Assembly (NCBI RefSeq): GCF_902806445.1
Contig: NZ_LR760298.1
Span: 1,612,001-1,676,000 of the forward strand
Length of the DNA stretch: 64,000 bases
From: Listeria sp. PSOL-1
Lineage (GTDB): Bacteria > Bacillota > Bacilli > Lactobacillales > Listeriaceae
Direction of reading: 5' to 3'
Part shown: positions 6,440 to 60,388 of the stretch, piece after piece
Position numbering within the stretch: position 1 is the stretch's first letter
Layout: every line of letters starts with the position of its first letter
Notes under the pieces: model-generated
Seen by the model: only the letters and a program-made list of their open reading frames with translations
Databases searched by the model: none
What the model was told of the DNA's origin: nothing
Translations under genes and position numbers: made by a program

Positions 6440-8704
6440 TTATTCTTGAATCGGTAATAAACGCGATGGCTTGCCTTCACTTATAATAAAAAGTTGGTGC
6501 ATTGCTCGCGAACAAATCGTATAAAGAAGCGTTCGTTCTTCTTCCAAATGATAATTTTCATCGGAAGCATCTAACACAATGACTCCATCAAATTCCAATC
6601 CTTTTGCTAAATAGGAAGGAATGATCATAATCCCATCGATTAGTTTTTGATTATCTAAATGAATCAGGCGCACCTCCATTTGCTGATATAAGGAAAGATA
6701 ACAATGCTCGCAGCTTTCCTTATTTTTACCAATAATCGCTACCATCCCATATTTTTCTTGCATCGCCTTTGCTTGCTTCACAATTTTATCCATCATTTCT
6801 AAATAACTTTTTGCTTCAACAATTTGTGGCAATTCACCATGTCGTTCAAAAGGTATAATCTGATTTTCATCTTGAATAATATCTCTTGTAAATTGCGTAA
6901 TCTCATATGTTGAACGATAACTTTTCTTCAGTTCGATTTGCCGCGCACGTGAAGGATCAAATAAATGAAGAATTTCATCGATGAGTGACCTTTCAGTTTG
7001 CTTTGTTTTAAAGATCGCTTGATTCAAATCCCCCAATAATGTAAAATGGCTACTTGGGAAAATAGATCTTAAATACGCAATTTGTGCAGGTGTATAATCT
7101 TGAATCTCATCAATAAACACAAACTTCATCGCTCGCATGGTCTCTTTACCAGTTAGTTGATCTTCTAGCTCCAAAAAGAAAACAACATCTTCCAATGCGA
7201 TTTGATTCGCATTCAGCCGCACCATCAATTGTTTTCTTTCAGCTTCCCATTCCTCTAAACGAATATTAAAATCCTTTAAATCAAGTAATTGTGGCACTTT
7301 TTTTATAAATTGAACGTATTGTTGTTTAAGGTGAAAATAATCGTGCTGCTTAATTTGTTCATGGGTATTTTTAAATTTTAAGCGAACCAGTTTCTTGGCT
7401 AAATAGTCTTCCTCCTCTTCAAAACTGCTAAACTCTAAATGTGTTGGCACTAAGGCATGATAATTTTCTTCACTAAGCAATTCAATTTCATCCTTAATCC
7501 AGTCTTTTTTAGCTTCTTGATTCATGATGACATAAAGCCGTTCTCGCAATTTTTTACTGGTTTCTTGAAGCTTCTCTATTCGCTTAAAATAAGCAGGAAA
7601 TGAAGCATAGATCGCTTGAATTTCTTGTTTTGAAATGATTATTTTCCCACGAAATTTAATATTCTTAAATTGAATTAAATCCCCAAGTTCTGCTGCATAA
7701 CGCTTCACTAATTGGTAAAAAACAAGGGACTCTTTTAAAGCTAAAATATTTTTATATTGCTTTTTTTCACGTGCTTCAAACTGTTCAAATAGACTTTTCA
7801 TTTCCATGCGCTTTAGTCTAACACTAGCAAAATCGTGAAAAGTTGTCTGTACCATATTTTTTTCACCAAGTTCAGGCAGTACATTGGCAATATAATGGTT
7901 AAACAAGCGATTAGGCGAAAAAATCATCATTTGCGTTTCATCCAGTCCTTCACGAAAACGATAAAGCAAATAAGCAATCCGCTGTAAAATAGCTGATGTT
8001 TTCCCACTTCCTGCAGCACCCTGGACAAACAATAAATCACTTGTTGTATCACGAATAATTTGATTTTGTTCCCGTTGAATCGTAGAAACAATGCTTTTCA
8101 TTTGTGCACTTGAACCCTCACCAAGCACTTCTTGTAACATTTCATCCCCGATCGCTTCGGTTGTATCAAACATCCTCTGAATGACAGCCTTTTTAATGGT
8201 ATATTGCCGCTTAAGCTTAACATCCACCTTCAATTTTCCTTCAGGCGTATTATAAACTGCTTCACCCATCCCTCCATCATAATAAATACTAGCAATTGGT
8301 GCACGCCAATCATATACAAGGAAATGATCCTCTTCATCTAAAAAAGAAGAAATCCCAATATAAAGCGATTCTGTTTTTTCATCTTTTTCAGCAACATCAA
8401 TGCGCGCAAAATAAGGCGAGCTTTTCATTTTTTTAAACGCGCGAATTTGTTTTTCAGAATGTTGATAATTCCGCTCACGTTCTCGCAAAAAATGTTCTTG
8501 CTGACGGATGCTGGCATTGGTTTCCGATACATCATCAAGCTCATTCAAATTAACACGAACATCTTCCCAAAAATTAGTACGAATATGACTTGCTTCTTGT
8601 CTGACTTTTTCAATCAAATGGATCAATTCATTTTCTCGTTTATTAATTTGTTGGATTGTATAATCAACACGCGCCTGTTCTTTTTGCCATTCGCTATCTT
8701 TCAT
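6440..8704 (-). CDS. helD: HelD-type RNA polymerase recycling helicase
   Basis: UvrD/Rep-like superfamily 1 ATPase that in Bacillus binds RNA polymerase, inserts into its channels and releases stalled or nucleic-acid-bound enzyme. The start at 8704 is chosen because GGAGGG lies seven T residues upstream; an ATG 15 bp earlier overlaps that ribosome site. This gives 754 residues. Seen: an N-terminal coiled-coil region, YDWRAPIASIYYD (about 131-143), Walker A GAAGSGKT (229-236), Walker B FVFIDEIQDY, and C-terminal helicase motifs including SYLAKGLEFDGVIVLD. Expression is probably controlled by the palindromic overlapping promoters at 8727-8806. Some HelD relatives give rifamycin tolerance, which would fit an unusual promoter. 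Confidence 0.9.
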   Translation of the reverse strand: MKDSEWQKEQARVDYTIQQINKRENELIHLIEKVRQEASHIRTNFWEDVRVNLNELDDVSETNASIRQQEHFLRERERNYQHSEKQIRAFKKMKSSPYFARIDVAEKDEKTESLYIGISSFLDEEDHFLVYDWRAPIASIYYDGGMGEAVYNTPEGKLKVDVKLKRQYTIKKAVIQRMFDTTEAIGDEMLQEVLGEGSSAQMKSIVSTIQREQNQIIRDTTSDLLFVQGAAGSGKTSAILQRIAYLLYRFREGLDETQMMIFSPNRLFNHYIANVLPELGEKNMVQTTFHDFASVRLKRMEMKSLFEQFEAREKKQYKNILALKESLVFYQLVKRYAAELGDLIQFKNIKFRGKIIISKQEIQAIYASFPAYFKRIEKLQETSKKLRERLYVIMNQEAKKDWIKDEIELLSEENYHALVPTHLEFSSFEEEEDYLAKKLVRLKFKNTHEQIKQHDYFHLKQQYVQFIKKVPQLLDLKDFNIRLEEWEAERKQLMVRLNANQIALEDVVFFLELEDQLTGKETMRAMKFVFIDEIQDYTPAQIAYLRSIFPSSHFTLLGDLNQAIFKTKQTERSLIDEILHLFDPSRARQIELKKSYRSTYEITQFTRDIIQDENQIIPFERHGELPQIVEAKSYLEMMDKIVKQAKAMQEKYGMVAIIGKNKESCEHCYLSLYQQMEVRLIHLDNQKLIDGIMIIPSYLAKGLEFDGVIVLDASDENYHLEEERTLLYTICSRAMHQLFIISEGKPSRLLPIQE

Positions 8705-8726
8705 AAAAAAACCCTCCATTTATCAC

Positions 8727-8755
8727 TTGACAAAAATCAATCTTTTATGTATAAT
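8727..8755 (+). promoter_or_regulatory. Consensus SigA promoter opposing helD
   Basis: TTGACA (8727-8732), 17 bp spacer, TATAAT (8750-8755): a perfect SigA consensus on the + strand, starting near 8762. It points away from helD and head-on into the helD promoter. The likely product is the short transcript ending at 8865. Confidence 0.85.
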
Positions 8756-8793
8756 TGAAATGAGATAGAATTAAATAATTATACATAAAAGAT
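8740..8793. promoter_or_regulatory. 17-bp perfect inverted repeat holding the helD -10
   Basis: Arms 8740-8756 and 8777-8793 are exact reverse complements with a 20-bp spacer. Each arm contains TATAAT: 8750-8755 on the + strand and 8783-8778 on the - strand. The - strand copy is the best helD -10, with a start near 8771 and a poor -35 (GTAAAT at 8806-8801). Because both transcripts start inside the spacer, neither RNA contains both arms, so the symmetry acts at the DNA level: a repressor operator, or paired convergent promoters. Confidence 0.75.
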
Positions 8794-8865
8794 GACATCC
8801 ATTTACTATAACATGTTTATTGCAATTAAGCAACCACGTACTTCGCTTTTGTGAAGTGCTTTTTT
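8762..8865 (+). ncRNA. Predicted short transcript from the promoter opposing helD
   Basis: The consensus promoter at 8727-8755 and the terminator at 8838-8865 define an RNA of about 104 nt that contains no plausible gene. It may be only the by-product of a blocking promoter, or a regulatory RNA. It starts within the helD promoter region but does not overlap the helD coding sequence. Confidence 0.45.
8838..8865 (+). terminator. Terminator between the helD promoter region and the CBS gene
   Basis: GTACTTC (8838-8844) pairs with GAAGTGC (8853-8859) with one G-U pair, and is followed by six T residues. Confidence 0.75.
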
Positions 8866-8935
8866 ATTGTCGCTGTACTATCCACATGCTTTAAGCTAAA
8901 ATAGGTATAAATAAGAAATGAATGGAGTGACTGTC

Positions 8936-10228: not shown

Positions 10229-10380
10229 AATCGACGGCAAGCGTTCGCATTTAAAAAGTTTGCCAGATTTCCGGTTCTCACGTACAATCGTACGCTCCGA
10301 TTCTAGCAAACTTTTTAAATAAAAACGCTTTCTATCGATTTGTCGTGTTCGAACTGTAGCACCTACGCTATATTTTTTAA
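10229..10380 (+). repeat. Intergenic hairpin repeat, copy A
   Basis: Long copy of the interspersed element: left flank TCGACGGCAAGCG, stem TTAAAAAGTTTGC (10251-10263) with GCAAACTTTTTAA (10306-10318), core GGTTCTCACGTAC (repeated in copies B and C), right flank AACGCTTTCTATCGATTTG and GTTCGAACTGTAGCACC, ending in a T run. It fills the gap between the HdeD gene stop and the speG start. Confidence 0.8.
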
Positions 10381-11031: not shown

Positions 11032-11051
11032 AAATGTAATTTAATCGTTTT

Positions 11052-11151
11052 CTTATCAAGAAAGGTGGAGGGACTGGCCCGATGAAGCCTTAGCAACCGA
11101 AATTTATTTCACGGTGCTAATTCCAGCAGAAATTTTTTCTGAAAAGATAAG
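11052..11151 (+). promoter_or_regulatory. SAM-I (S-box) riboswitch upstream of metX
   Basis: P1 pairs CTTATC (11052-11057) with GATAAG (11146-11151). The interior holds the conserved S-box blocks GGTGGAGGGACTGGCCCGAT, AGCAACC and GGTGCTAATTCCAGCAG. S-adenosylmethionine binding would favour the terminator at 11181 and switch metX off when methionine is plentiful. Confidence 0.95.
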
Positions 11152-11180
11152 TTGGTACAATTCTATGCTGCAAAATTTGT

Positions 11181-11235: not shown

Positions 11236-12351
11236 ATGGGATTAAAACAAGTAGTGTTGTTTGAAGAAACGCCATTTATTCTTGAAAATGGTGCGAAATT
11301 AACTGAAGTCATGATCGGCTATGAAACATACGGAATTTTAAATAAAACAGGGGATAATGTTATTTTATTAGAGCATGCGTTGACAGGAACTGCACATGCA
11401 GCTAAACACTTTGCAGAAGATGAAGCTGGTTGGTGGGATTCTTATATTGGACCTGGTAAAGCGCTTGATACAACAAAATATTTTATTATTTGTACGAATG
11501 TATTTGGCGGGTGTAGTGGCACAACTGGTCCTTCTTCTCTCAACCCTAAAACAGGAAAAGCTTTTCGGCTAACTTTTCCCGGGTTTAGTATAAAAGATAT
11601 CATTCGACTACAGCGTGAGCTACTAACAGCTTTAGAGATTCGGCATCTTATCGCGGTTATCGGCGGCTCAATGGGTGGTATGCAGGCAACACAGTGGGCG
11701 ATTGATTATCCTGACATAACTGACACAGCGATTAATATTGCTTCGCCACTTGCAGCCGGTCCTGACGCAATTGGTTATAATTTGATTATGCGTATGGCCA
11801 TTTTAAATGATCCAGATTTTAACGAAGGAAATTATGATGGGCAACCAGAAGGCGGACTGGCCACTGCTCGAATGATAGGAATGATGACTTACCGAACAAG
11901 TGAGCTCTTTTCTAAACGCTTCAAACGCTTTACTGTTAGCGAAAGTTCTCCTTCTGCATTTTCTAAAGAGCACTTTCAAGTTGAATCGTATTTACATTAT
12001 CAAGGCGATGCTTTTGTTGAACGCTTTGATGCGAATAGCTATTTATTTTTAACTAAAGCGATCGATTTATTTGATGTTACTGTGCCAAGAAGTGGAGAAA
12101 TTTCATGTTGTGAGACCATTCGAATCCCCTACCTAATGATTGGTATTACAAGCGATCAACTATTCCGGATTCACGATTTACGCCGTCATCATAATGTGCT
12201 AAAAGCGGCTCAAGTTCCAGTCACATATGTTGAGGTTGATTCAGAATACGGACACGATGCTTTTTTAGTAGAAGAAGAGACAAGTAAATTTGCTAATTTA
12301 ATCACGGACTTTTTAAAGGAGCATGAAAAACAGCCTGATCTACTTTATTAA
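11236..12351 (+). CDS. metX: Homoserine O-acyltransferase MetX
   Basis: Alpha/beta-hydrolase-fold enzyme activating homoserine by acylation (acetyl-CoA in most members, succinyl-CoA in some) at the first step of methionine synthesis. The 371 residues include [14 protein letters not shown] (about 88-101), the nucleophile elbow GGSMGGMQ with Ser145, and the C-terminal catalytic YGHDAFL. A ribosome site AAAGGATG precedes the ATG. It is regulated by the SAM-I riboswitch. The sulfhydrylase gene metY, which neighbours it in L. monocytogenes as I recall, is not adjacent here. The stop overlaps the convergent methyltransferase gene by four bases. Confidence 0.92.
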
Positions 12352-27807: not shown

Positions 27808-27965
27808 AAACGCTAACGGCAGCATTGAAGAAGAGTGCCAGACTTCCGGTTCTCACGTACAGTCGTACGCTCCACTTCCGGCTTCTGGCACTCTTCTTCA
27901 ATGTAAACACTTTCGCTCGATTTATCGTGTTCGAAATGTAGCACCTACGCGCTATTTTTTGAACT
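27808..27965 (+). repeat. Intergenic hairpin repeat, copy B
   Basis: Long copy with a perfect 18-bp stem, 27824-27841 with 27885-27902. The core holds CCGGTTCTCACGTACAGTCG. The right flank has AACACTTTCGCTCGATTTA and GTTCGAAATGTAGCACC and ends in a T run. It lies between metQ and copB. Confidence 0.85.
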
Positions 27966-30631: not shown

Positions 30632-30742
30632 CTTCTCATCTTCCAGAACAACTTGTGTCCTGCATGAATTAGCACCTTAAGTAAAACTACTTAGGTTGCT
30701 GGGCTTCACTGGGCATTTCCCTCCACCACTCTTGATAAGAAT
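30632..30742 (-). promoter_or_regulatory. SAM-I (S-box) riboswitch upstream of metNIQ
   Basis: On this strand the leader reads CTTATCAAGAG, GGTGGAGGGAAATGCCC, AGCCCAGCAACC, AAGGTGCTAATTC and GGAAGATGAG, the conserved S-box blocks in the correct order. It reduces metNIQ expression when S-adenosylmethionine is abundant. Confidence 0.95.
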
Positions 30743-41288: not shown

Positions 41289-41490
41289 TCAATCGACGAC
41301 AAGCGCTTGCAGTTCAAAATGAAGAGGTTTGCTAGACTTCCAGTTCTCACGTACAGTCGTACGCTTCTGGTTTCTGGCAAACCTCTTCAATACAAACGCT
41401 ATCGCTTGATTTGTCATGTTCGAAATGTAGCATCTACACGATGTCTTTTCTTAAAAAAGAGCGTTGACTCGCATGACGTCTCAAACTGAT
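41289..41490 (+). repeat. Intergenic hairpin repeat, copy C
   Basis: Longest copy. Left flank ATCGACGACAAGCGCTTGCA, stem 41319-41334 with 41373-41388 (one G-U pair), core TTCTCACGTACAGTCGTACG, right flank CAATACAAACGCTATCGCTTG and GTTCGAAATGTAGCA, then a tail CTTAAAAAAGAG to CATGACGTC shared with copy E. It fills most of the gap between the small SigB-type gene and the permease. Confidence 0.85.
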
Positions 41491-49133: not shown

Positions 49134-49182
49134 AAAAAGCAGGGTCAGATAAGTTTTAATTACTTATCTGACCCTGCTTTTT
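49134..49182 (+). terminator. Very strong terminator ending the threonine operon
   Basis: A perfect 21-bp stem, 49134-49154 with 49162-49182, loop TTTAATT. The A and T runs are included in the stem, so it can act in both directions. Confidence 0.92.
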
Positions 49183-50656: not shown

Positions 50657-50706
50657 CCAATTTCACTCATAATTTTTTATTTTTAAAAAATTATGAGTGA
50701 AATTGG
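50657..50706. other. Perfect 23-bp hairpin upstream of the accessory genes
   Basis: Arms 50657-50679 and 50684-50706 are exact reverse complements around TTTT. It lies between the tRNA terminator and the small membrane protein gene. The outer part GAGTGAAATTGG is not related to the repeat family. It could be a terminator remnant or an insertion scar. Confidence 0.6.
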
Positions 50707-50721
50707 TTTTAATGATAGATA

Positions 50722-50788
50722 AAAAACATCTTATAAATAGCAAATGCCCTACCAGAGCTAAGTTTAACGCCATTTATAAGATGTTTTT
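50722..50788 (-). terminator. Terminator after tRNA-Arg
   Basis: A 17-bp perfect stem, 50722-50738 with 50772-50788, with a 33-nt loop and A/T runs at both sides. It lies 13 bp beyond the tRNA 3' end. Confidence 0.6.
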
Positions 50789-50801: not shown

Positions 50802-50873
50802 CGCCCTCGGAGGGAATCGAACCCCCATTTTAAGAACCGGAATCTCACGTGCTATCCGTTGCACCACGAGGGC
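50802..50873 (-). tRNA. tRNA-Arg, anticodon CCG
   Basis: On this strand the acceptor stem pairs GCCCTCG with CGAGGGC, the D arm is GTGC/GCAC, the anticodon stem TGAGA/TCTTA encloses TTCCGGT (anticodon CCG), and the T arm is GGGGG-TTCGATT-CCCTC. The CCA is not encoded. About 72 nt. Accessory genes lie on its 3' side, the usual place for integration at tRNA genes. Confidence 0.93.
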
Positions 50874-51696: not shown

Positions 51697-51845
51697 AAAA
51701 AATTAGCGGAAATTCTATATTTCGAATACGACAAATCAAGCGAAAGCGTTTGTAATTGAAGAGGTTTGCCAGAAATCGGAAGCGTACAACTTCCGAAAAT
51801 CTGGCAAACCTCTTCAATCGCGAGCGCTTGTCGCCGATTTATTTT
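51697..51845 (-). repeat. Intergenic hairpin repeat, copy D (inverted orientation)
   Basis: Reads as the family only on the - strand: left flank AATCGGCGACAAGCGCTCG, 19-bp perfect stem (51755-51773 with 51800-51818), right flank AATTACAAACGCTTTCGCTTG and ATTCGAAATATAG. The usual core is replaced by a second small stem CGGAAG/CTTCCG (51777-51782, 51790-51795). It lies between the convergent clpP and nupC. Confidence 0.8.
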
Positions 51846-60221: not shown

Positions 60222-60388
60222 CACTCACGATTTAAGAGGTTTGTCAGACTTCCGGTTCTCACGCACAATCGTACGCTCCGCTTCTGACAAACCTCTTAAA
60301 TACAAATGTTTTCGTTCTATTTTTTAAACCATATTTTCTTAAAAAATAGAGCTGAATCACATGACACCCAAACTCATTTTTCACTCAA

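What the first reader, a model, noticed from the sequence alone, without database searches (positions are those of the whole stretch)
8727..8806. Palindromic head-on promoters in front of helD
A perfect 17-bp inverted repeat (8740-8756, 8777-8793) puts a TATAAT in each arm. The + strand copy belongs to a flawless TTGACA-17-TATAAT promoter that fires into the helD promoter; the helD side has the same -10 but a poor -35. Both starts fall in the 20-bp spacer, so no RNA contains both arms and the symmetry must work on DNA. RNA polymerase on the strong promoter should occlude the weak one. A drug or stress that changes polymerase occupancy could then switch helD on, letting the target polymerase itself act as sensor. 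I have an unverified memory that rifamycin-inducible genes of some Firmicutes carry inverted-repeat promoter elements. A conventional repressor operator is the alternative.
Basis: partly seen in the sequence, partly recalled or inferred. Interest (0 to 1): 0.75.

Follow-up and report, generated by a model that had tools for sequence, protein, structure and literature searches.

The report
Rifampicin-alarm promoter pair before helD
Two promoters fire head-on in front of a gene that probably protects RNA polymerase from rifampicin, an arrangement already shown in Bacillus subtilis to switch such genes on when the drug appears; the eye-catching perfect palindrome looks like a peculiarity of this one species.

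Summary
The 17-bp inverted repeat and the perfect TTGACA-17-TATAAT promoter are real and beyond chance. The helD-side promoter was misassigned. All 9 Listeria helD upstream regions compared carry a sense promoter TTGnnn-17-TGnTATA(C/G)T, here TTGCTT/TATAGT at 8833-8805, predicted start 8798. It faces the antisense promoter at a predicted start-to-start distance of 37 bp (37-42 over the nine); B. subtilis has 39. This is the layout of the published rifampicin alarm of B. subtilis helD and pps (PMC12802891), where the antisense promoter represses helD until rifampicin blocks it. The polymerase-as-sensor idea therefore fits a known mechanism; in Listeria it is inferred. The palindrome is in none of 56 other promoter regions scored and is best read as a lineage-specific accident that adds a leader hairpin. 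One new link: in 14 Listeria genomes the same pair precedes rifampin phosphotransferase, and 6 of 11 such regions given to Rfam match sRNA Rli27 where the antisense RNA should lie.

The parts
6440..8704 (-). helD, class I (HelD_BACSU-type) RNA polymerase recycling motor; probable start ATG 8704-8702 (open frame begins at 8719)
   Evidence: NF041464 802 bits; best PDB match 6wvk_H, E 3.3e-168; start by Shine-Dalgarno position and alignment
8712..8717 (-). Shine-Dalgarno GGAGGG of helD
   Evidence: sequence
8727..8755 (+). antisense promoter: TTGACA 8727-8732, 17 bp, TATAAT 8750-8755; predicted start 8762
   Evidence: equivalent in 9 of 9 Listeria helD regions
8805..8833 (-). sense promoter of helD: TTGCTT 8833-8828, 17 bp, extended -10 TGT-TATAGT 8813-8805; predicted start 8798
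8762..8798 (.). 37-bp interval between the two predicted starts, inclusive (B. subtilis: 39 bp)
   Evidence: paper section 48
8740..8756 (+). arm 1 of the perfect inverted repeat; overlaps spacer and -10 of the antisense promoter
   Evidence: no equivalent in the relatives scored
8740..8793 (-). hairpin predicted in the helD leader RNA if transcription starts near 8798
8838..8867 (+). intrinsic terminator of the antisense RNA (about 107 nt from 8762)
   Evidence: a terminator is predicted at 104-150 nt in 9 of 9 Listeria helD regions

Best explanation
The region is the helD version of the two-promoter rifampicin alarm. A strong antisense promoter (start near 8762) sends polymerases through the weaker sense promoter of helD (start near 8798), making a short antisense RNA that ends near 8867 and keeping helD low. 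When a few polymerases carry rifampicin, the busier antisense promoter is blocked first; interference stops, drug-free polymerase escapes from the sense promoter, and HelD is made and protects polymerase. Shown here: anatomy, spacing, predicted terminator, conservation. Shown by others in B. subtilis only: repression, rifampicin induction, the need for the antisense promoter and for the spacing. Inferred: that it works this way in this species. The 17-bp palindrome is a lineage-specific addition, probably a local inverted copy of the antisense promoter arm, and is not needed for the alarm.
For: Sense and antisense promoters with predicted starts 37-42 bp apart in 9 of 9 Listeria helD regions compared (one beside a broken helD); these are 9 of the 10 genomes (of 25) with a HelD over the family cut-off. 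Same layout, spacing 33-42, in 28 of the 30 best-scoring Bacilli helD loci (160 of 299 genomes matched); one of the 28 (L184) does not exceed its shuffles. 0 of 2000 shuffles of the window region reach its score; it is the only pair over the threshold in the 64-kb window, against 1, 0, 0, 0, 0 in five shuffled windows. A strict pattern of the pair hits once in each of 7 of 25 Listeria genomes, each time at helD, reversed-pattern control 0 in all 25. Antisense terminator predicted in 9 of 9 Listeria helD regions and in 24 of the 28 Bacilli regions. Published mechanism in B. subtilis. The predicted antisense RNA of the equivalent pair at rph coincides with Rli27, an RNA seen by Northern blot in L. 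monocytogenes.
Against: No expression data for this species. The antisense spacer is 17 bp here, against 19 bp noted for both B. subtilis antisense promoters. The tenth Listeria HelD (G009, 33% identity) has no convincing pair, and neither have 76 of the 78 scorable helD loci, nearly all Lactobacillaceae, so the system is not universal for helD. Slow escape from the sense promoter, which the model needs, cannot be read from sequence.
Confidence: 0.85

Rival explanations
1. One reading: the two TATAAT elements in the palindrome are the two promoters, with starts 10 bp apart, so that polymerase on one physically excludes the other.
For: The arm-2 TATAAT is a perfect hexamer facing helD.
Against: No good -35; no equivalent in the 8 other Listeria helD regions, while another sense promoter is conserved in all; B. 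subtilis loses inducibility when the 39-bp gap is cut by 17 bp.
Confidence: 0.07
2. The palindrome is an operator for a dedicated repressor or activator of helD.
For: Perfect dyad symmetry overlapping a promoter; beyond chance.
Against: Not found at the other helD or rph regions scored; outside this site one match with 2 mismatches in the genome against two for the reversed control; the flanking genes are a CbpA-type CBS protein and an oligopeptide symporter, not a regulator of known type.
Confidence: 0.05
3. The palindrome acts at RNA level: a 5' hairpin in helD mRNA that lengthens its life or tunes pairing with the antisense RNA, on top of the alarm.
For: Leader fold -19.6 kcal/mol, z -3.56, 17-bp stem starting about 5 nt from the predicted 5' end, ribosome site left open. 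5' stem-loops protect mRNAs in Bacillota (recalled).
Against: The 8 other Listeria leaders show no comparable fold (z -1.46 to +1.23); the interval between starts has mean z -0.7 over 11 helD regions including the window; the stem has only two G-C pairs.
Confidence: 0.3

Closest known systems
B. subtilis helD / pps two-promoter rifampicin alarm (Sudzinova et al. 2026, PMC12802891)
   Same: Class I helD; antisense promoter between sense promoter and gene; start-to-start about 39 bp; short terminated antisense RNA (about 90 nt in vivo there, about 107 nt predicted here)
   Different: 17-bp antisense spacer instead of 19; perfect 17-bp palindrome over the antisense -10; strengths and induction not tested in Listeria
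Listeria sRNA Rli27 (Rfam RF01463; PMC4214639)
   Same: Coincides with the predicted product of the antisense promoter of the same kind of pair, upstream of Listeria rph; about 130 nt, terminated
   Different: At rph, not helD; no Rfam match in the window or at the two helD loci tested; reported to act in trans on lmo0514
Actinobacterial rifampicin-associated element (RAE)
   Same: Palindrome overlapping a promoter of a HelD-type gene (as described in the discussion of PMC12802891)
   Different: RAE is 19 bp and present at several genes, regulator unknown; here the repeat is at one site in the genome and lies in a convergent promoter pair

Membership tests
two-promoter rifampicin alarm | sense promoter upstream of the gene with an opposing promoter between it and the gene | tested here: met
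   by sequence
two-promoter rifampicin alarm | antisense promoter stronger than sense promoter | tested here: inconclusive
   by my consensus score only: 10.5 against 9.4; activity not measured
two-promoter rifampicin alarm | start-to-start distance near 39 bp | tested here: met
   37 bp predicted; 37-42 in 9 Listeria helD regions
two-promoter rifampicin alarm | short antisense RNA ended by an intrinsic terminator | tested here: met
   predicted
two-promoter rifampicin alarm | located before a rifampicin-protection gene such as helD or pps/rph | tested here: met
   rph case
two-promoter rifampicin alarm | 19-bp antisense spacer (noted by the authors, not shown to be required) | tested here: not met
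   17 bp here; 17 or 18 bp in nearly all relatives with a pair (one 15)
two-promoter rifampicin alarm | induction by sub-inhibitory rifampicin; slow escape from the sense promoter | not testable with these tools
   needs experiments
RAE palindrome | shared element upstream of several rifamycin-induced genes | tested here: not met
   arm found only at this site with up to 1 mismatch and not in the relatives scored
RAE palindrome | match to the RAE consensus | not tested
   consensus not retrieved
Rli27 (RF01463) | match to the covariance model | tested here: not met
   no hit in the window or in L001/L004; hits at 6 of 11 rph-type loci given

The most novel reading that the evidence does not exclude
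In Listeria the rifampicin alarm is a one-per-genome module that guards either helD or rph, and at rph its antisense transcript is the known sRNA Rli27, reported as about 20-fold induced inside host cells and acting on lmo0514. If so, the drug alarm and an intracellular RNA regulator are one device: rifampicin should lower Rli27, and intracellular induction of Rli27 should hold rph down. In the window's species the palindrome would further couple the helD leader to the antisense promoter sequence.
Probability: 0.45. Interest if true: 0.7.

Novelty: new member of a known kind. Interest (0 to 1): 0.45.

Why it matters
It carries a drug alarm that needs no dedicated regulator protein from B. subtilis into a genus with an important pathogen, suggests that the same sensor has been kept while the protected gene differs (helD or rph), and gives a named, already detected sRNA (Rli27) a probable origin as its antisense arm. 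That makes a direct test possible: does rifampicin lower Rli27?

Tried and rejected
Conserved hairpin between the starts: small hairpins are visible in several Listeria helD regions, but z-scores are weak (9 Listeria regions from +0.62 to -2.34; 29 Bacilli mean -0.03; 17 rph-type mean -0.47), so I do not claim one. Operator: judged unlikely on uniqueness. Rfam element at the palindrome: none. Chance: rejected. Origin of the palindrome by template switching: plausible because the interval is not longer than in relatives, but not testable without a close relative; the nearest other HelD among the 25 genus genomes is 64% identical.

Limits and dropped rows. L009, L012 and L013 come from the same G001 helD as L011 and were not counted again; L094-L103 repeat loci. 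The 30 Bacilli loci are the best-scoring ones, not a random draw; L182 scored 15.2 and L195 gave no pair. Some of the 56 comparison regions for the repeat (L182, L166, L169, L170) have no convincing pair. rph candidates were picked by frame length (851-912 aa); none of those matches reaches the profile's own cut-off, so absence of rph in a genome is provisional. Rfam was run on 11 of my 17 rph loci. Start codons are approximate and scores are an ad hoc hexamer scale of my own. The supplementary tables of PMC12802891, which may list Listeria, could not be opened; its main text has the word Listeria once, for the RPH structure. Search for a printed link between Rli27 and rifampicin: 3 papers hold both words; listing and starts of abstracts seen; by title none is about Listeria; no 'rifamp' in the main text of PMC4214639; no Rli27 in the main text of PMC12802891. 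One search was badly framed: the 15 listed of 10,177 papers do not contain Rli27.

Full report
WHAT IS THERE. The perfect inverted repeat (8740-8756 / 8777-8793) and the + strand TTGACA-17-TATAAT promoter are exactly as described. No shuffle of the region (0 of 1000) gives even a 14-bp perfect repeat. The gene on the minus strand is helD, a class I HelD like that of B. subtilis. [quoted passage not shown] subtilis (D56, D57, E60), two positions are acidic here, read by me from the alignment (N, E, D). The likely start of helD is 8704, behind GGAGGG.

WHICH PROMOTER DRIVES helD. I compared the window with the 8 other Listeria genomes that have a close helD (60-64% identity; in G001 it is in pieces of 49-77%, broken by stops). 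All 9 have TTGnnn-17-TGnTATA(C/G)T on the helD strand and TTGAC(A/T)-17-TATAAT, TATAGT or TATATT on the other. In the window the sense promoter is TTGCTT 8833-8828 and TGTTATAGT 8813-8805, predicted start 8798. Predicted starts are 37 bp apart here, 37-42 bp over the nine. A tenth genome (G009) has a HelD of 33% identity without a convincing pair.

HOW SPECIFIC THE PAIR IS. Only this pair passes my threshold in the 64-kb window (five shuffled windows: 1, 0, 0, 0, 0), and 0 of 2000 shuffles of the region reach its score. A strict pattern hits once in each of 7 of 25 Listeria genomes, each time at helD, with 0 control hits; the helD regions of G006 and G008 are missed because their antisense -10 differs. 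Of the 30 best-scoring Bacilli helD loci (160 of 299 genomes matched), 28 score 18 or more with spacing 33-42; one of these, L184, does not beat its shuffles. Of 80 loci from the named-genome scan, 78 could be scored and 2 (a Bacillus and a Neobacillus) have a pair of that strength; the others are nearly all Lactobacillaceae. A terminator for the antisense RNA is predicted at 104-150 nt in 9 of 9 Listeria helD regions (about 107 nt in the window) and within 160 nt in 24 of 28 Bacilli regions; of the two named Bacillus/Neobacillus regions one has it and one does not.

HOW IT WORKS. In B. subtilis the same layout was dissected (PMC12802891; I read the abstract, sections 37, 42, 45, 47, 48, 49, 50 and passages). 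The antisense promoter is several-fold stronger, escapes fast, and its polymerases disturb the slow sense promoter. A little rifampicin arrests the antisense promoter first and releases helD. Mutating the antisense -10, or using a rifampicin-resistant polymerase, removes inducibility. The starts are 39 bp apart and cutting 17 bp abolishes regulation. The window fits this by anatomy; induction in Listeria is inferred.

WHAT THE PALINDROME IS. One search scored 57 promoter regions: 11 helD (9 Listeria including the window, 2 Bacillus/Neobacillus), 29 Bacilli helD and 17 Listeria rph-type; one further Bacilli region gave no pair. Only the window has a long perfect repeat over the antisense -10 (17 bp; next longest 11). 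Outside this site the arm has no match in the genome with up to 1 mismatch and one with 2, against two control matches. The antisense arm sits where relatives have theirs, so arm 2 is probably the derived copy; the interval is not longer than in relatives, which suits conversion or template switching (inference). Because the conserved helD start lies outside arm 2, the helD leader should contain both arms and can fold into a hairpin starting about 5 nt from its 5' end (z -3.56). A role in mRNA stability is possible and untested.

THE rph SIDE AND Rli27. I took the region upstream of 17 rph-type genes in Listeria (candidates chosen by frame length). 14 of 17 have the pair at 38-40 bp: 13 and L156, which has a masked stretch. 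By their N-terminal fragments these 14 proteins are 56-100% identical to the one that matches the solved RPH structures; the other three (43-45%, one over only 49 residues) lack the pair and lie in G004, G006 and G008, whose helD has it. So over the 25 genomes I find the pair at helD in 9, at rph in 14, at both in none, and at neither in G009 and G024. Rfam was run on 11 of the 17 rph loci and 2 helD loci: RF01463, sRNA rli27, matches 6 of the 11, each time beginning 14 nt after my predicted antisense start; three tested loci with the pair (L157, L162, L164) and two without it (L166, L170) have no match. In the six, T-runs end 119-132 nt from the predicted start. Rli27 is a 131-nt RNA, seen by Northern blot at about 130 nt, between lmo0411 and lmo0412 on the other strand, about 20-fold induced in intracellular bacteria (PMC4214639, section 7 and passages). 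That paper calls lmo0411 similar to phosphoenolpyruvate synthase and its main text does not mention rifampicin. On my reading the intracellular rise of Rli27 would keep rph down there; that is a prediction, and such a rise is the opposite of what rifampicin should produce.

VERDICT. It is a new member of a mechanism published in January 2026, with a palindrome seen only in this species so far and a useful link to a known sRNA.

Noticed in passing
window 10249-10320, 27823-27903, 41320-41389, 51755-51818, 60230-60301: A dispersed hairpin repeat of 64-81 bp (arms like TTGAAGAGGTTTGCCAGA): 113 arm matches with up to 3 mismatches in this 2.1-Mb genome, control 0; the 24 other Listeria genomes have 0-7, like their controls (0-9). 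No Rfam match in the window at these places. Looks like a species-specific burst of a REP/MITE-like element.
   Followed up: partly
Listeria rph upstream regions L154, L155, L160, L163, L165, L168: sRNA Rli27 (RF01463) coincides with the predicted antisense transcript of the convergent promoter pair.
   Followed up: yes
25 Listeria genomes (G000-G024): The convergent pair was found at helD in 9 genomes, at rph in 14, at both in none, at neither in 2.
   Followed up: partly
window 11050-11153 (+), 30633-30741 (-), 50802-50873 (-): Two SAM riboswitches and a tRNA; the first riboswitch precedes a homoserine O-acetyltransferase-like gene at 11236-12351 (name from recall).
   Followed up: no
window 50657-50706, 49134-49182, 50722-50788: Further long perfect inverted repeats with arms of 23, 21 and 17 bp; the second has the shape of a terminator.
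   Followed up: no
G001 C2:186024-188309 (L009, L011): helD is in pieces with stops inside, yet its promoter pair is intact; the assembly is 89% complete, so an assembly error is possible.
   Followed up: no
G000: Single-contig genome of 2.10 Mb, against 2.6-3.2 Mb for the other 24 genomes of the genus.
   Followed up: no
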